Positions 996 through 22,739 of a DNA stretch of 36,049 nt are shown here, one piece after another (the stretch's first letter is position 1; each line of letters starts with the position of its first letter). The position numbers and the translations under genes were made by a program. The notes under the pieces are model-generated. The model was not told the DNA's origin and did no database searches. It was given only the letters and a program-made list of their open reading frames with translations. The stretch lies in assembly GCA_015069015.1 (NCBI GenBank), contig SVJK01000015.1, forward strand, positions 1-36,049. The letters run 5' to 3'. This DNA is from Oscillospiraceae bacterium (GTDB lineage Bacteria; Bacillota; Clostridia; UMGS1810).

Positions 996-1263
996 TTTTT
1001 GGGGAATGTAAAAAAAGTCCAGACCGCAAAAAGGCAGTGATAATAAGCAATACAGAGTATTAATTAGCCTGTAAATCATTTGAATTTGCTAAAAATGTTG
1101 AAAAACATCTGTTTTTCTTCAATTATATGCCTTTTTGCTATTGCCAAATCTCACCACTCGCAGTACCTTTGTACAACTTCGGGTTACCACTCAAAGCATG
1201 GCTCTGCCCTGCTTTGAGTTCGATTTGACAATTCTGAATCTTTTTTTCTATTCCCCCCAAAGG
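996..1263. repeat. Structured repeat element, diverged single copy (relative of the trimer at 20838-21289)
   Basis: A 268-base element with imperfect terminal inverted repeats. The left end TTTTGGGGAATGTAAAAAAAG pairs with the right end (CTTTTTTTCTATTCCCCCCAAAG). Nested inside are GCAAAAAGGCA (1026-1036) with TGCCTTTTTGC (1128-1138), GAAAAACA/TGTTTTTC (1100-1107/1110-1117), ATTGCCAAATC/GATTTGACAAT (1140-1150/1222-1232), GTAC-CTTT-GTAC (1163-1174) and CTCAAAGCA/TGCTTTGAG (1190-1198/1210-1218). Blocks shared with the 20.8-kb copies are AATCTCACC, GTACCTTTGTAC, CTTCGGG, TTCGATTT and CAATTCTGAATC. The 1022-1139 segment is absent from the other copies. No protein is encoded; an ORF crossing it is spurious. 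Confidence 0.75.
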
Positions 1264-1303
1264 GACTGTAAATTAATTTGCCGAATTAATTTACAGTCTT
1301 TTA
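1264..1303 (+). terminator. Rho-independent terminator after nrdDG and the repeat
   Basis: A perfect 15-bp stem, GACTGTAAATTAATT (1264-1278) with its complement (1284-1298), a 5-base TGCCG loop and a following TTTT. Its core is nearly identical to the dapA/holA terminator at 22695-22739. Confidence 0.8.
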
Positions 1304-7168: not shown

Positions 7169-8998
7169 ATGTGTTCAATATGTGCAATCGCAGATTTTAA
7201 AAACAATCAAAACATCGATCCCGGAATACTTTCTGTAATGGGAAAAAGTATGAAACACAGAGGCCCCGATGACACGGGATTATATCTGACTCCCCATGTG
7301 TCTTTTTGTCATAACCGTCTTTCTGTTATGGACGTAAAAAGAGGCAAACAACCCATGACAGCCGTGTATGAAGGGAAAAAGTACATAATATGTTATAACG
7401 GAGAAATATATAACACCATAGAACTTAAAAAAGAACTTGTGGAATATGGAGCAGAGTTTTTTACAGACTGTGACACGGAAGTTCTTTTGTGGTCCTACAT
7501 AATATGGGGCAGGGAATGTGTAAAAAAACTCAACGGCATTTTTGCATTTATAGTATACGATGAATCCAAAAGAGAATTGTTTCTTGCAAGAGACAGATTT
7601 GGCGTCAAACCTCTTTTTTATAGCTTCATAGACACAACACTTGTTGTATCATCTGAAATAAAAGCAATGCTGTCTCATCCGTCAATTAAACCAAAAGTTG
7701 ATAAAACAGGGCTTTGGCAACTTTTGTTTTTATCACCGGTGACATTTAATAACACCACGGTTTTTCGTGACATATTCCAGCTTTCACCCGGGGAATGTGC
7801 AACATTTTCCATATCGGGATTTAAAAAGGAAAAATACTGGACTATGGAATCAAAACCCCATACAGATTCAAGAGAAGAAACCATCTATAAAACAAAGGAA
7901 CTTTTAAAGACGGCAGTAAAAAGACAACTTAAAAGCGATGTTCCTCTTTGCACATTTTTGTCAGGTGGTCTTGATTCATCTGCCATAACAGCCATCGCTT
8001 CAAAGGAAATGAGGGAAAGGGGTGAAAAACTTTCCACCTATTCCTTTGAATATGAGGGAAACAAGGAAAATTTCAAACAAAGTCTTTTTCAGCCAAAAAG
8101 TGATGACGATTTTGCAACGGGACTTTCGGATTTCCTTTTTACTGACCACAAGGTTCTCACTGTTTCCACAGAAAGCCTTTCTGAATATCTTTCATATGCC
8201 GTTGATGCAAGAGATTTTCCCGGTCAGGCTGACATAGATTCTTCTCTTATATATTTTTGTGAAAAGGTGAAAGAAAATCACACCGTTGCTCTTTCGGGAG
8301 AATGCAGTGACGAAATCTTCGGGGGATATCCGTGGTTTTACAGAGAAGAAATGCTAAAAAGAGATTTTTTCCCCTGGATTCACGATCCCTATGTAAGAGT
8401 ATCGCTTTTTAAAGAAGATGTTATCTCGCCCAAAGACGGATACAATTATGTCAGCAACAGATACAAAAACGACCTTGGCGAATTCAGTTTTCTTGACACA
8501 GACAGTCCTGAAATGAAAAATTCAAGAATTGCCACAAATCTTTCCGTGAAATATTTTATGACGTCTCTTCTTGAAAGAAAAGACCGTATGAGTATGGCAA
8601 GGGGAGTGGAAGTGCGTGTTCCTTTTGCAGATCATCATCTTGCCGAGTATGTATATAACGTTCCGTGGGATATAAAATTTGAAAATGCAACAGAAAAATC
8701 ACTTTTAAGATATGCCGTGGAAGATTATCTTCCAAAAGAGATAACATGGCGCAAAAAAAGTCCTTATCCCAAAAGTCATGATCCATCTTATGCAAAGATT
8801 GTGACAGAACTTTTAAGAAAAAGACTTAGTGTCAGAAACACTCTCTTTTGTGAACTTTGTGACAAGGAAAAAATCAATGAAATGCTGTCCTCTGACGGAG
8901 ACACATGGTTTGGTCAACTTATGGCAAAACCACAACTCATTGCCTGGCTTTTGCAGTTTGACTATTGGCTGGAAAAGTATAATATAGTTCTAGTTTAA
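7169..8998 (+). CDS. asnB: Asparagine synthetase (glutamine-hydrolysing)
   Basis: Converts aspartate, glutamine and ATP to asparagine, glutamate, AMP and PPi. 609 aa. The start is set at the second ATG (7169), not 7163, because glutaminase activity needs the catalytic Cys directly after the initiator Met (MCSICAIADF, Cys2) and the TGAGG site is 8 bases away. The N-terminal Ntn amidotransferase domain (~1-210) shows KHRGPDDTG, NGEIYN and LARDRFGVKPLFY. The synthetase domain has the PP-loop SGGLDSS (about 265-271) and SGECSDEIFGGYPW, the conserved ATP/Asp site. It stands alone between two terminators. Family members can also amidate peptides or cell-wall precursors, but nothing here suggests that. 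Confidence 0.93.
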   Translation: MCSICAIADFKNNQNIDPGILSVMGKSMKHRGPDDTGLYLTPHVSFCHNRLSVMDVKRGKQPMTAVYEGKKYIICYNGEIYNTIELKKELVEYGAEFFTDCDTEVLLWSYIIWGRECVKKLNGIFAFIVYDESKRELFLARDRFGVKPLFYSFIDTTLVVSSEIKAMLSHPSIKPKVDKTGLWQLLFLSPVTFNNTTVFRDIFQLSPGECATFSISGFKKEKYWTMESKPHTDSREETIYKTKELLKTAVKRQLKSDVPLCTFLSGGLDSSAITAIASKEMRERGEKLSTYSFEYEGNKENFKQSLFQPKSDDDFATGLSDFLFTDHKVLTVSTESLSEYLSYAVDARDFPGQADIDSSLIYFCEKVKENHTVALSGECSDEIFGGYPWFYREEMLKRDFFPWIHDPYVRVSLFKEDVISPKDGYNYVSNRYKNDLGEFSFLDTDSPEMKNSRIATNLSVKYFMTSLLERKDRMSMARGVEVRVPFADHHLAEYVYNVPWDIKFENATEKSLLRYAVEDYLPKEITWRKKSPYPKSHDPSYAKIVTELLRKRLSVRNTLFCELCDKEKINEMLSSDGDTWFGQLMAKPQLIAWLLQFDYWLEKYNIVLV

Positions 8999-11666: not shown

Positions 11667-12443
11667 TTATTCTTCATCAAAAGATGCGGGACACATTACA
11701 AAAAAGACTTTATTGCCAACGTTTCCTGCAATCATTTCATCTGCTTCTGTGCAGATGTTCCATCTTTTGTTTGCGTTTGCTTTGAGATTTGCCACAAAAG
11801 AGGATGCATCTGTATCTGCATCAAGTGTAAATACATATCCGATAAAGGGGATAGAACCAATCATAGGTGCAAACATATATCCTTCGGAAAATCCTTTAAT
11901 CTCTGCATTATCAAAACCGTTCAAAAATCCGGGTTCAACGCTCATTGACGCACCGCCAAAGGGAATTACGGGATTTGTTAAAAGTGCATCTGCAATTGCC
12001 TGGGCGCTCATTGAGGACGCTTTTGATTTAAAATCTGCCAAAAGAATGTTTCCGACTGTCTTGGGTTTTTCTTCGGGTTTCACCTCAGGTTTCACCTCAG
12101 GTTTTACCTCGGGTTTTGTTTCAGGTTTTGTTTCAGGTTTTGTTTCAGGTTTTGTTTCAGGTTTTACCTCGGGCTTTGCCTCGGGTTTTGTTTCAGGCTT
12201 AGCTTCAGGTTTTGCCTCGGGTTTTTCTTCAGGCTTTATTTCATCTGCTTTTTCTTCGTCTTTTTCAGCCTCATCAACAACCTCTTCGGATGATGAATCT
12301 ACAGTCTCGTCAATAGATGAGTCTGTAATTTTATCTGATTGTGATGGTTTTGATGTTTCAGTTTTTTTCTCATCTTTTTTACCGCATGCAGCAAAAGATG
12401 CCACAACAGAAATTGCTAAAATAAGTGCCAATAATTTTTTCAT
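11667..12443 (-). CDS. Lipoprotein with (KPEx)14 repeat linker
   Basis: 258 aa from the ATG at 12443, with AAAGGAG upstream; the longer reading to 12503 has no ribosome site. The signal peptide ends in the lipobox FAAC/GKKDEKK. An acidic Ser/Glu-rich stretch is followed by 14 KPEx tetrapeptides plus KPK (DNA 12060-12236), with x = E, A, T or V. This probably forms an extended spacer through the cell wall. The C-terminal ~110 residues (VGNILLADFKSKASSMSAQAIADALL... to PASFDEE) form a small folded domain with VFTLDADTDASSFVANLKANANKRWNICTEADEMI. I do not recognise its family. It is downstream of a TetR gene on the same strand. Confidence 0.85.
   Translation of the reverse strand: MKKLLALILAISVVASFAACGKKDEKKTETSKPSQSDKITDSSIDETVDSSSEEVVDEAEKDEEKADEIKPEEKPEAKPEAKPETKPEAKPEVKPETKPETKPETKPETKPEVKPEVKPEVKPEEKPKTVGNILLADFKSKASSMSAQAIADALLTNPVIPFGGASMSVEPGFLNGFDNAEIKGFSEGYMFAPMIGSIPFIGYVFTLDADTDASSFVANLKANANKRWNICTEADEMIAGNVGNKVFFVMCPASFDEE
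12060..12236 (-). repeat. In-frame 12-bp tandem repeat coding for KPEx
   Basis: Fourteen 12-base units plus a partial unit, 59 codons in total, inside the lipoprotein gene. Third positions and the fourth codon vary, so the array is not a fresh expansion, but TCAGGTTTTGTT-type units near 12120-12165 are almost identical. A change of whole units would keep the frame. Confidence 0.9.
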
Positions 12444-19809: not shown

Positions 19810-20838
19810 ATGAATATGATTTTTGAAAGAAAACTTCCCATCCCTCAGGAGGTTAAGGAAATGTATCCCGTATCAGAGGATATAAAAAACCTTATAGCAG
19901 AAAGAGACAGAGAAATCGCAGACATTTTCACAGGAAAATCAGAAAAAATCGTTCTCATCATCGGACCTTGTTCTGCTGATAACGAGGATAGCGTAATAGA
20001 TTATATTTCAAGACTCAGAACTATTCAGGATAAGGTTTCAGATAAGATTTTCATAATTCCCAGAATCTACACCAACAAACCCCGTACAACAGGCGACGGC
20101 TACAAGGGAATGCTTCATCAGCCCGACCCCAACGAAAAACCCGATATGTTTAAAGGCATTGTTGCCATAAGGGAACTTCATATGAGAGCCCTTCGTGAAA
20201 CAGGATTTTCATGTGCAGATGAAATGCTCTATCCTGAAAACTACAGATACTTAAATGATATTTTAGCATACGTTGCAATCGGTGCACGCTCTGTGGAAAA
20301 TCAGCAGCACCGCCTTACCGCAAGCGGACTTGACATTCCCGTGGGAATGAAAAACCCCACAGGCGGCGACCTTTCGGTTATGATGAATGCCATAACTGCC
20401 GCACAGCATAAGCATACCTTCATATACCGCGGCTGGGAAGTTCATTCTCAAGGCAACCCCCTTGCTCACGCAATCTTAAGAGGTTATGTCAACAAACACG
20501 GTCAGAGTCTTCCCAACTATCACTATGAAGACCTCATTTCCCTTTGTGAACTCTACGATAATTCCAATCTTGCAAATCCTGCAGTTATCATTGATACCAA
20601 CCACGCAAACTCAGGAAAGAAATACGATCAGCAAAGTCGCATCGCAAAAGATGTAATGCACAGTTGCCGTCACGATGAAAGAATCAAGAAAATGGTTAAA
20701 GGATTTATGATAGAAAGTTATATTGAAGACGGAGCGCAGAAAATCGGCGAGTGCATCTGGGGAAAATCCATCACAGATCCTTGTCTTGGATGGGAAAAGA
20801 CAGAAAAATTAATATATGATCTTGCAGAACTCGTATGA
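19810..20838 (+). CDS. 3-deoxy-7-phosphoheptulonate (DAHP) synthase, AroFGH type
   Basis: 342 aa. First step of the pathway: PEP + erythrose-4-phosphate to DAHP, metal-dependent. Motifs LIIGPCSADNEDS, YTNKPRTTGDGYKG, GARSVENQQHR, VGMKNPTGGD, DTNHANSGKKYDQQ and GFMIESYIEDGAQ identify the type I-alpha (AroF/G/H-like) class with its N-terminal extension, which carries inhibitor sites in E. coli. Many Firmicutes use the AroA(I-beta) form instead. Which amino acid inhibits this enzyme cannot be read with confidence, so no F/G/H letter is given. Last gene of the operon, 24 bases after tyrA; the trimer repeat begins at its stop codon. Confidence 0.95.
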   Translation: MNMIFERKLPIPQEVKEMYPVSEDIKNLIAERDREIADIFTGKSEKIVLIIGPCSADNEDSVIDYISRLRTIQDKVSDKIFIIPRIYTNKPRTTGDGYKGMLHQPDPNEKPDMFKGIVAIRELHMRALRETGFSCADEMLYPENYRYLNDILAYVAIGARSVENQQHRLTASGLDIPVGMKNPTGGDLSVMMNAITAAQHKHTFIYRGWEVHSQGNPLAHAILRGYVNKHGQSLPNYHYEDLISLCELYDNSNLANPAVIIDTNHANSGKKYDQQSRIAKDVMHSCRHDERIKKMVKGFMIESYIEDGAQKIGECIWGKSITDPCLGWEKTEKLIYDLAELV

Positions 20839-20983
20839 TTTTGGGATGTAAAAAAAGTCCATAATTGATTAATCTCACCTCAGGCGTACCTTTGTACGCC
20901 TTCGGGCTGTCGTGCCACCCGTGAATGTTTCCCGGGTGGCATTCGATTTCTCAATTCTGAATCATTTTTTCCTATCCCAAAAT
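20838..20983. repeat. Structured repeat, copy A (complete terminal inverted repeats)
   Basis: A 146-base element beginning on the last base of the DAHP synthase stop. Ends ATTTTGGGAT (20838-20847) and ATCCCAAAAT (20974-20983) are perfect inverted repeats, followed inward by A7/T6 runs and AATTGA/TCAATT (20863-20868/20951-20956). Inside are two perfect hairpins: AGGCGTAC-CTTT-GTACGCCT (20882-20901) and GCCACCCG/CGGGTGGC (20914-20921/20933-20940). No coding capacity. The same fold is seen in the diverged element at 996-1263. Confidence 0.85.
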
Positions 20984-21000
20984 AGGGAACGCGATTTAAC

Positions 21001-21136
21001 GTAAAAAAGTCCATAATTGATTAATCTCACCTCAGGCGTACCTTTGTACGCCTTCGCTCTGTCGTGCCACCCGTGAATGTTTCCCAGGGTGGCATTCGAT
21101 TTCTCAATTCTGAATCATTTTTTCCTATCCCAAAAT
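21001..21136. repeat. Structured repeat, copy B
   Basis: Near-identical to copy A with period 152, but it lacks the outer left ATTTTGGGAT, replaced by AGGGAACGCGATTTAAC. Differences from A: CTTCGCTCTG for CTTCGGGCTG in the inter-hairpin loop, and an A inserted in the second hairpin loop (TTTCCCAGGGTGGC), which shortens the stem to 7 bp. Confidence 0.85.
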
Positions 21137-21153
21137 AGGGAACGCGATTTAAC

Positions 21154-21289
21154 ATAAAAAAAGTCCATAATTGATTAATCTCACCTCAGGCGTACCTTTG
21201 TACGCCTTCGCTCTGTCGTGCCACCCGTGAATGTTTCCCGGGTGGCATTCGATTTCTCAATTCTGGATCATTTTTTCCTATCCCAAAAT
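21154..21289. repeat. Structured repeat, copy C
   Basis: Third tandem copy, 155 bases after B, with the same AGGGAACGCGATTTAAC joiner. It has the CTTCGCTCTG loop of B but the intact 8-bp CCCG/CGGG stem of A, and a single change in CTGGATCA near its end. It stops 11 bases before the stop codon of the minus-strand gene at 21301. Confidence 0.85.
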
Positions 21290-21300
21290 AGGGCGGCAGT

Positions 21301-21579
21301 TTATCGTCTGAATAATCCTTTAACAGCCCCAAAAACTATCCCAACCAGTGAAATCAATAAAACACTTCCGAGAGAATATCCGAAAAGTCCTAAAGAAAAA
21401 GAGGCTGATTTGCAGATTGCAATAATGTTTCCGAGTGTGAGCAAGGTTATGAGAAAGATGAGTTCTGCGTTTTCTTTTCTCACTTTCTTTCTTGTTTTCG
21501 TAATGCTTTTAAGTGCGGGAACATCTTTGTTGCACACTCCGTATGGTCTCATGTAAGGAATTGTATGTACGTTTGTCAT
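21301..21579 (-). CDS. Small membrane protein, two helices, unknown function
   Basis: 92 aa from the ATG at 21579, preceded by GAAGGAGG at good spacing; the longer reading to 21720 has no ribosome site. The N-terminal ~45 residues are soluble and basic (MTNVHTIPYMRPYGVCNKDVPALKSITKTRKKVRKENAE). Two hydrophobic helices follow (~44-60, LIFLITLLTLGNIIAIC, and ~65-86, LGLFGYSLGSVLLISLVGIVFGAV), then a short basic end GLFRR. No family was recognised. It is a monocistronic gene, divergent from dapA; the 3' end abuts the repeat trimer. The ribosome site and codon use suggest a real gene. Confidence 0.7.
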   Translation of the reverse strand: MTNVHTIPYMRPYGVCNKDVPALKSITKTRKKVRKENAELIFLITLLTLGNIIAICKSASFSLGLFGYSLGSVLLISLVGIVFGAVKGLFRR

Positions 21580-22682: not shown

Positions 22683-22694
22683 TACTTAGAAATT

Positions 22695-22739
22695 AAAGGG
22701 AATGTAAATTAATTTGGCAAATTAATTTACATTCCCTTT
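22695..22739. terminator. Bidirectional terminator between dapA and holA
   Basis: A perfect 21-bp stem (22695-22715 with 22719-22739) and a 3-base GGC loop, with A/T runs at both bases. The core TGTAAATTAATTTG is shared with the terminator at 1264-1298. Confidence 0.9.

What the first reader, a model, noticed from the sequence alone, without database searches (positions are those of the whole stretch)
996..1263. Diverged cousin of the repeat keeps the fold while stem sequences change
The element after nrdG shares short blocks with the 20.8-kb copies (AATCTCACC, GTACCTTTGTAC, CTTCGGG, TTCGATTT, CAATTCTGAATC), but the second hairpin is CTCAAAGCA/TGCTTTGAG instead of GCCACCCG/CGGGTGGC. The inner closing stem is ATTGCCAAATC/GATTTGACAAT instead of AATTGATTAATC/GATTTCTCAATT. 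Pairing is kept though sequence differs, i.e. compensatory change. That argues that the folded RNA or single-stranded DNA matters. Both loci sit at the 3' end of an operon. This may be an undescribed structured RNA or mobile-element family.
Basis: partly seen in the sequence, partly recalled or inferred. Interest (0 to 1): 0.7.

Follow-up and report, generated by a model that had tools for sequence, protein, structure and literature searches.

The report
Mobile folded repeat behind stop codons
The stretch after nrdG is one copy of a previously uncatalogued family of small, strongly folding mobile repeats that has spread through many gut Clostridia and usually sits just after the stop codon of a gene; the matched changes in its stems are real, but much of that matching probably arises in the DNA and so does not by itself show a working RNA.

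Summary
Window 1001-1256 is a diverged copy of the repeat present three times at 20839-21288. It belongs to a family of about 32 copies in this 2.15-Mb MAG. A covariance model finds it, mostly multi-copy, in 43 of 391 Clostridia genomes and in no other genome of a 399-genome phylum sample. Rfam and the papers searched show nothing like it. The fold is an outer stem, an optional arm, an inner stem and two hairpins. Both-side changes occur at 43 of 47 pairs in 91 sequences (0 of 500 shuffles). Copies are absent from 28 orthologous sites inspected in relatives, are nested with other repeats, and lie same-strand within about 40 nt of a stop codon in 57 of 97 cases. So it is a mobile, MITE/REP-like element, not an ancestral RNA gene. 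The step from compensatory change to functional RNA is weak: stems are almost purely Watson-Crick, with no G-U excess over A-C, and an adjoining palindrome changes in concert far faster than its neighbour sequence, as template switching in DNA would produce. The inner stem does carry a position-specific A-C mismatch. The mobilising enzyme and the function are unknown. New member of a known kind.

The parts
1001..1256 (+). Long-type copy of the element after nrdG (about 256 nt)
   Evidence: CM core hit 1135-1239; 94-96% identical long copies on contigs C11, C88, C8 and C62
1001..1007 (+). Outer stem P1, left tip GGGGAAT (partner 1250-1256), followed by TGTAAAAAAAGTCC
   Evidence: tips vary but pair across copies
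1026..1138 (+). Optional arm A of the long type: GCAAAAAGGCA (1026-1036) / TGCCTTTTTGC (1128-1138), with an internal hairpin
   Evidence: absent from short-type copies such as 20839-20982
1140..1150 (+). Inner stem P2, left arm ATTGCCAAATC (partner 1222-1232, one C-A mismatch)
1151..1183 (+). Most conserved block TCACCACTCG-CA-GTACCTTTGTAC-AACTTCGGG with the GTAC hairpin (P3)
1190..1218 (+). Hypervariable hairpin 3: CTCAAAGCA/TGCTTTGAG
1222..1232 (+). Inner stem P2, right arm GATTTGACAAT
1241..1256 (+). T-tract and right tip of P1: TTTTTTTCTATTCCCC
1259..1302 (+). Adjoining independent 44-nt palindrome AAAGGGACTGTAAATTAATTTGCCGAATTAATTTACAGTC...; also found alone elsewhere
20839..20982 (+). 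Short-type copy 1 after the aroF-like gene
20992..21135 (+). Short-type tandem copy 2, without its own left tip
21145..21288 (+). Short-type tandem copy 3
22691..22739 (.). Solo copy of the adjoining palindrome family, just after the dapA-like gene

Best explanation
It is a copy of a non-autonomous, miniature mobile element made of nested inverted repeats, of the MITE/REP/YPAL kind, that multiplies in Clostridia genomes and settles just behind stop codons in the orientation of the gene. SHOWN: one family; a conserved branched self-complementary fold with conserved unpaired blocks; tens of copies per genome; absence from orthologous sites; nesting with other repeats; a position tied to the upstream stop codon. 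INFERRED: it is moved in trans by an enzyme not identified here; it is tolerated there because the tail of the upstream transcript simply ends in an extra set of hairpins with an A-tract and a T-tract, which may act as a weak two-way terminator or 3'-end block; and much of the stem compensation arises in DNA, where template switching within a palindrome copies one arm onto the other, so that stems drift in sequence while staying perfectly paired.
For: About 32 copies in the genome, long ones 94-96% identical at unrelated loci. Patchy multi-copy occurrence: 11 of 60 relatives, 43 of 391 of the class, 0 of 398 other genomes of a phylum sample. No element at 28 orthologous or homologous sites in relatives: nrdG, aroF-like and two further genes. 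Nesting: other repeats inside hairpin 3 and inside arm A, and a head-to-tail second left end. In G001 copies are embedded in units bounded by the inverted repeat AAATTGGAGTTTATCG/CGATAAACTCCAATTT, whose 15-mer core occurs 112 times there and 0 times in the control pattern. Position: left tip within -30 to +40 nt of a same-strand stop in 57 of 97 copies, against 13 of 94 for the right tip and convergent stops. Covariation: 43 of 47 pairs, 457 cells, 0 of 500 shuffles, slid controls 59-78 cells. DNA-level maintenance: G-U no commoner than A-C in hairpin 3 and arm A; palindromes of L046 and L048 differ at four pairs, all compensated, while 118-nt cores differ at one base; the palindrome loop reads AA or TT between copies.
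Against: No autonomous copy, no transposase and no target-site duplication were found. The A-C/C-A mismatch at P2 pairs 7-9 and the sequence-conserved loops need selection or recognition beyond template switching. A simple scan finds no intrinsic-terminator-like site in either element. Gene calls for the position test were crude longest-ORF calls.
Confidence: 0.65

Rival explanations
1. A functional structured RNA: the 3' tail of the upstream mRNA, or an antisense RNA from the other strand, folds into the branched structure and regulates message stability, ribosome release or termination; selection on the RNA fold keeps the pairs.
For: Very strong covariation with conserved loops; same-strand position right after stop codons. 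E. coli REPs within 15 nt of a stop codon are reported to lower translation (PMC12306157). The P2 mismatch series G-C / A-C / A-U reads as C-G / U-G / U-A on the minus strand.
Against: G-U is almost absent and equals A-C in hairpin 3 and arm A. The P2 asymmetry favours the minus strand, i.e. antisense to the gene, which does not fit a 3'-UTR role. Absent from orthologous genes. No Rfam match.
Confidence: 0.2
2. A single-stranded DNA hairpin substrate: the minus strand, exposed during replication, is recognised and moved by a structure-specific enzyme (as REPs by RAYTs or attC by integron integrase); the A-C/G-T position in P2 is a recognition feature.
For: Position-specific mismatch, 77 A-C to 2 G-U in P2; hypervariable terminal hairpin with conserved unpaired blocks; insertion of other palindromic modules into its hairpins; preferred orientation relative to genes.
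Against: Y1 transposase genes do not track the element: not detected in G002, G007 and G046 which have it, and present in many genomes without it. The own RAYT-like gene carries GTAG-type repeats and no copy of this element lies near it. No core-site motif was identified.
Confidence: 0.2
3. Only a family of two-way intrinsic terminators that look alike because terminators in these genomes share A-tract/palindrome/T-tract design.
For: A7 and T7 tracts flank the stems; location after stop codons; the aroF-like gene in G004 ends with a bare palindrome at the same place; purely Watson-Crick stems suit function on both strands.
Against: Conserved 33-nt core sequence in many families of the class; 94-96% identical copies at unrelated genes; the A/T tracts are lost in some distant copies while pairing stays; no terminator-like site by scan.
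Confidence: 0.1

Closest known systems
YPAL/RU-2 elements of Yersinia (about 168 bp; PMC2229807)
   Same: Small, non-coding, strongly folding, intergenic, multi-copy; YPAL targets lie in or next to dyad symmetries, comparable to terminators
   Different: Unrelated host group; no sequence comparison was made; YPAL makes target duplications of 3-26 bp, none was resolved here
Pneumococcal SPRITE, BOX and RUP repeats (PMC3049150, PMC10969869)
   Same: Intergenic folded repeats that cluster and insert into one another; SPRITE is terminator-like
   Different: Different host; branched fold with a conserved CTCG..GTAC..CTTCGGG core here; no IS partner known
REP elements and RAYT transposases (PMC3733652; PMC12306157)
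   Same: Extragenic palindromes, many near stop codons
   Different: REPs are 20-40 bp with a GTAG tag; this element is 130-260 nt without it; Y1 genes do not co-occur with it
MITE-like units with the inverted repeat AAATTGGAGTTTATCG in the same genus (found here)
   Same: Some copies of our element lie inside such units and share their ends
   Different: Most copies, including both window loci, lack these ends, and most such units carry other inner modules

Membership tests
MITE (non-autonomous DNA element) | Short, non-coding, many dispersed copies | tested here: met
   About 125-270 nt, about 32 copies
MITE (non-autonomous DNA element) | Terminal inverted repeats | tested here: met
   Imperfect paired ends (P1), outermost bases variable but paired; a clear 16-bp outer repeat only in the G001-type units
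MITE (non-autonomous DNA element) | Presence/absence at orthologous loci | tested here: met
   Absent at 28 inspected sites
MITE (non-autonomous DNA element) | Target-site duplication | tested here: inconclusive
   No near-identical empty site available; relatives too distant
MITE (non-autonomous DNA element) | Shares ends with an autonomous transposon | tested here: inconclusive
   None seen among listed TIR pairs; one 4.4-kb pair had no transposase
REP | 20-40 bp hairpin tagged GTAG (or CGTC) | tested here: not met
   Conserved sequence and length differ
REP | Associated RAYT gene | tested here: not met
   No copy near the Y1 genes checked; no co-occurrence
YPAL-like element | Insertion in or next to dyad symmetries with target duplications of 3-26 bp | tested here: inconclusive
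   Adjoining palindromes are common and a bare palindrome stands at one orthologous site, but no junction could be resolved
Structured RNA family | Covarying helices above shuffled and slid controls | tested here: met
   R-scape itself could not be run
Structured RNA family | Wobble (G-U) tolerated in preference to A-C on the transcribed strand | tested here: not met
   Plus strand G-U:A-C in hairpin 3 3:3, arm 1:1, P2 2:77
Structured RNA family | Transcribed | not testable with these tools
   No RNA-seq held
Structured RNA family | Match to a known Rfam family | tested here: not met
Intrinsic terminator | G+C-rich hairpin directly followed by a T-run | tested here: not met
   0 sites in 900-1420 and 20750-21400 by a simple scan

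The most novel reading that the evidence does not exclude
A widespread Clostridia element whose folded minus strand (DNA or RNA), marked by a conserved mismatch in its inner stem and conserved loops, is recognised by an unknown structure-specific mobilisation system that inserts into or beside hairpins behind stop codons, building modular palindromes within palindromes.
Probability: 0.2. Interest if true: 0.75.

Novelty: new member of a known kind. Interest (0 to 1): 0.48.

Why it matters
It is a large uncatalogued repeat family in gut Clostridia (43 of 391 genomes sampled) that breaks assemblies and decorates the 3' ends of genes. It is also a clear warning case: textbook covariation in stems need not mean a functional RNA, and counting G-U against A-C on both strands offers a simple test. 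The nested modules give material to ask how palindromic repeats spread without a visible transposase.

Tried and rejected
Rfam at gathering and at lax thresholds: no match. Viral contigs: no exact core match. RAYT/Y1 transposase as mobiliser: no co-occurrence, and the own RAYT-like gene has GTAG repeats. Host-terminator origin of the outer tip (each copy wedged inside a local terminator): rejected for recent copies, because near-identical copies carry the same tip; still open for old ones. The 4.4-kb TIR pair in G001 as an autonomous element: only ordinary genes inside. Conserved internal motif as kink-turn or integron attC: considered by eye from general knowledge, no fit. The palindrome pairing printed was off by one base and is superseded. 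The flanks of a fifth upstream gene (L263-L266) showed the wrong ORF and were not used. C19 holds only a contig-end fragment, not an autonomous copy. An unanchored count of stem mismatches mixed in chance helices and was replaced by the anchored count.

Full report
OBSERVATION. The element after nrdG spans 1001-1256, about 12 nt behind the nrdG stop codon. It shares its blocks with three tandem copies at 20839-21288 directly behind the aroF-like stop. The second hairpin differs completely in sequence and pairs perfectly in both loci. The inner stem pairs in both but with one and two mismatches, so those two loci alone do not show clean compensation there. Folding is far stronger than in shuffles on either strand (z about -7 and -6).

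FAMILY. BLASTN in the own genome (a 2.15-Mb MAG in 101 contigs) finds about 30 places; many lie at contig ends, as repeats do. Two types exist: short (about 125-150 nt) and long (about 245-270 nt), the latter with an extra arm GCAAAAAGGCA...TGCCTTTTTGC after GTCCAG. The window copy at 1001-1256 is long; those at 20.8 kb are short. A covariance model R1 from 16 own copies finds the element in 11 of 60 relatives, in 43 of 391 genomes of the class from 27 of 222 genera, and in none of 398 others in a phylum sample, which also serves as a false-positive control. Named records holding the core are MAGs of ruminant-gut Clostridia. Rfam shows nothing, and the papers found by my searches did not describe it; that library holds only open-licence papers.

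FOLD. The architecture is constant: variable outer tip, A-tract/T-tract stem (P1), optional arm, inner stem P2, a conserved block TCACC.CTCG..GTACCTTTGTAC..CTTCGGG with a small hairpin, a hypervariable hairpin 3, then TTCG and the right arms. Pair counts on 91 distinct sequences: 43 of 47 pairs with both-side change, 457 such cells, 0 of 500 shuffles, slid versions 59-78 cells; on the own copies 25 of 47. The alignment was fitted to the model and leans towards it; the 16-copy alignment was not.

RNA OR DNA? In a single-stranded RNA, G-U should outnumber A-C among intermediates. With a symmetric scoring, hairpin 3 has 698 Watson-Crick cells, 3 G-U and 3 A-C; the arm base 471, 1 and 1. P2 has 2 G-U and 77 A-C, concentrated at pairs 7-9 (two-sided binomial about 1e-20, which ignores relatedness of copies). 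So plus-strand RNA pairing is not what the changes track; P2 carries a position-specific mismatch that is G-U/U-G on the other strand. The palindrome next to the element shows how fast arms change together: two copies with cores differing at 1 of 118 bases have palindromes differing at four pairs, all compensated and both perfect, and the loop occurs as AA or TT between copies. Template switching is reported to create and repair stems in one event (PMC8794818). I infer that it contributes here; it was not tested on ancestral sequences.

MOBILITY. None of 28 orthologous or homologous sites inspected in relatives carries the element: 9 for nrdG, 8 for the aroF-like gene, 8 and 3 for two other upstream genes. 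Long copies 94-96% identical lie at unrelated loci. Other repeats sit inside hairpin 3 (C21) and inside arm A (C88/C12), and a second left end follows head to tail at C91. In G001 near-identical copies are parts of units bounded by AAATTGGAGTTTATCG/CGATAAACTCCAATTT; the core of this repeat occurs 112 times in G001 and 16 times in the own genome, with none for the reversed control, and flanks other nested palindromes as well. No transposase was found with these ends, and Y1 transposases do not track the element.

POSITION. With crude gene calls, 57 of 97 copies have the left tip within -30 to +40 nt of a same-strand stop codon, against 7 with an opposite-strand gene end there, and against 13 of 94 for the right tip and convergent stops (Fisher p about 1e-10). 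E. coli REPs within 15 nt of a stop codon are reported to lower translation (PMC12306157), so an effect on the upstream gene is possible but untested.

CONCLUSION. This is a new, widespread family of the known kind of miniature folded mobile repeats, closest in behaviour to YPAL, SPRITE/BOX/RUP and REP elements. It is not a member of the REP family by the tests made. The finding's RNA inference is weakened; a single-strand DNA role remains open.

Noticed in passing
window 1259-1302 and 22691-22739; about 17 further places in the own genome: Dispersed 44-nt palindrome family (AAAGGGACTGTAAATTAATTTGCCGAATTAATTTACAGTCCCTTT) with outer bases that vary but stay paired; lies behind genes or directly after the long element
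   Followed up: partly
L231 2185-2691 (own genome C1) and L232 (G004): RAYT-like transposase genes whose coding regions contain an inverted pair of GTAG-type REP sequences
   Followed up: partly
G001, 112 places; L319-L328, L334: Family of 150-370-bp MITE-like units with inverted repeat AATTGGAGTTTRTCG and nested inner palindromes such as CTCCCTTGTGTAAAGGGAGCTGTCACGAAGTGACTGAGGGATTGTT; minimal 53-bp perfect palindrome in the own genome at C32 (L329)
   Followed up: partly
window 20839-21288; L213 (C91) from 1518: Head-to-tail tandem copies that share or lack the left tip, suggesting tandem insertion or unequal exchange
   Followed up: no
L214 (own genome C21), inside the element copy at 8278-8684: About 280-nt palindrome-ended repeat (TGACAG...CTGTCA) inserted in hairpin 3
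   Followed up: no
window 12036-12280: Thirteen 12-nt tandem repeats inside a long ORF
   Followed up: no
L184, behind nrdG of G002: A different branched hairpin (ACAGCTGT..TTTTTC [CTGCACTCGGGCTTCGGAATGGC..] GAAAAAC..ACAGCTGT) sits at the orthologous place, possibly another nested family
   Followed up: no
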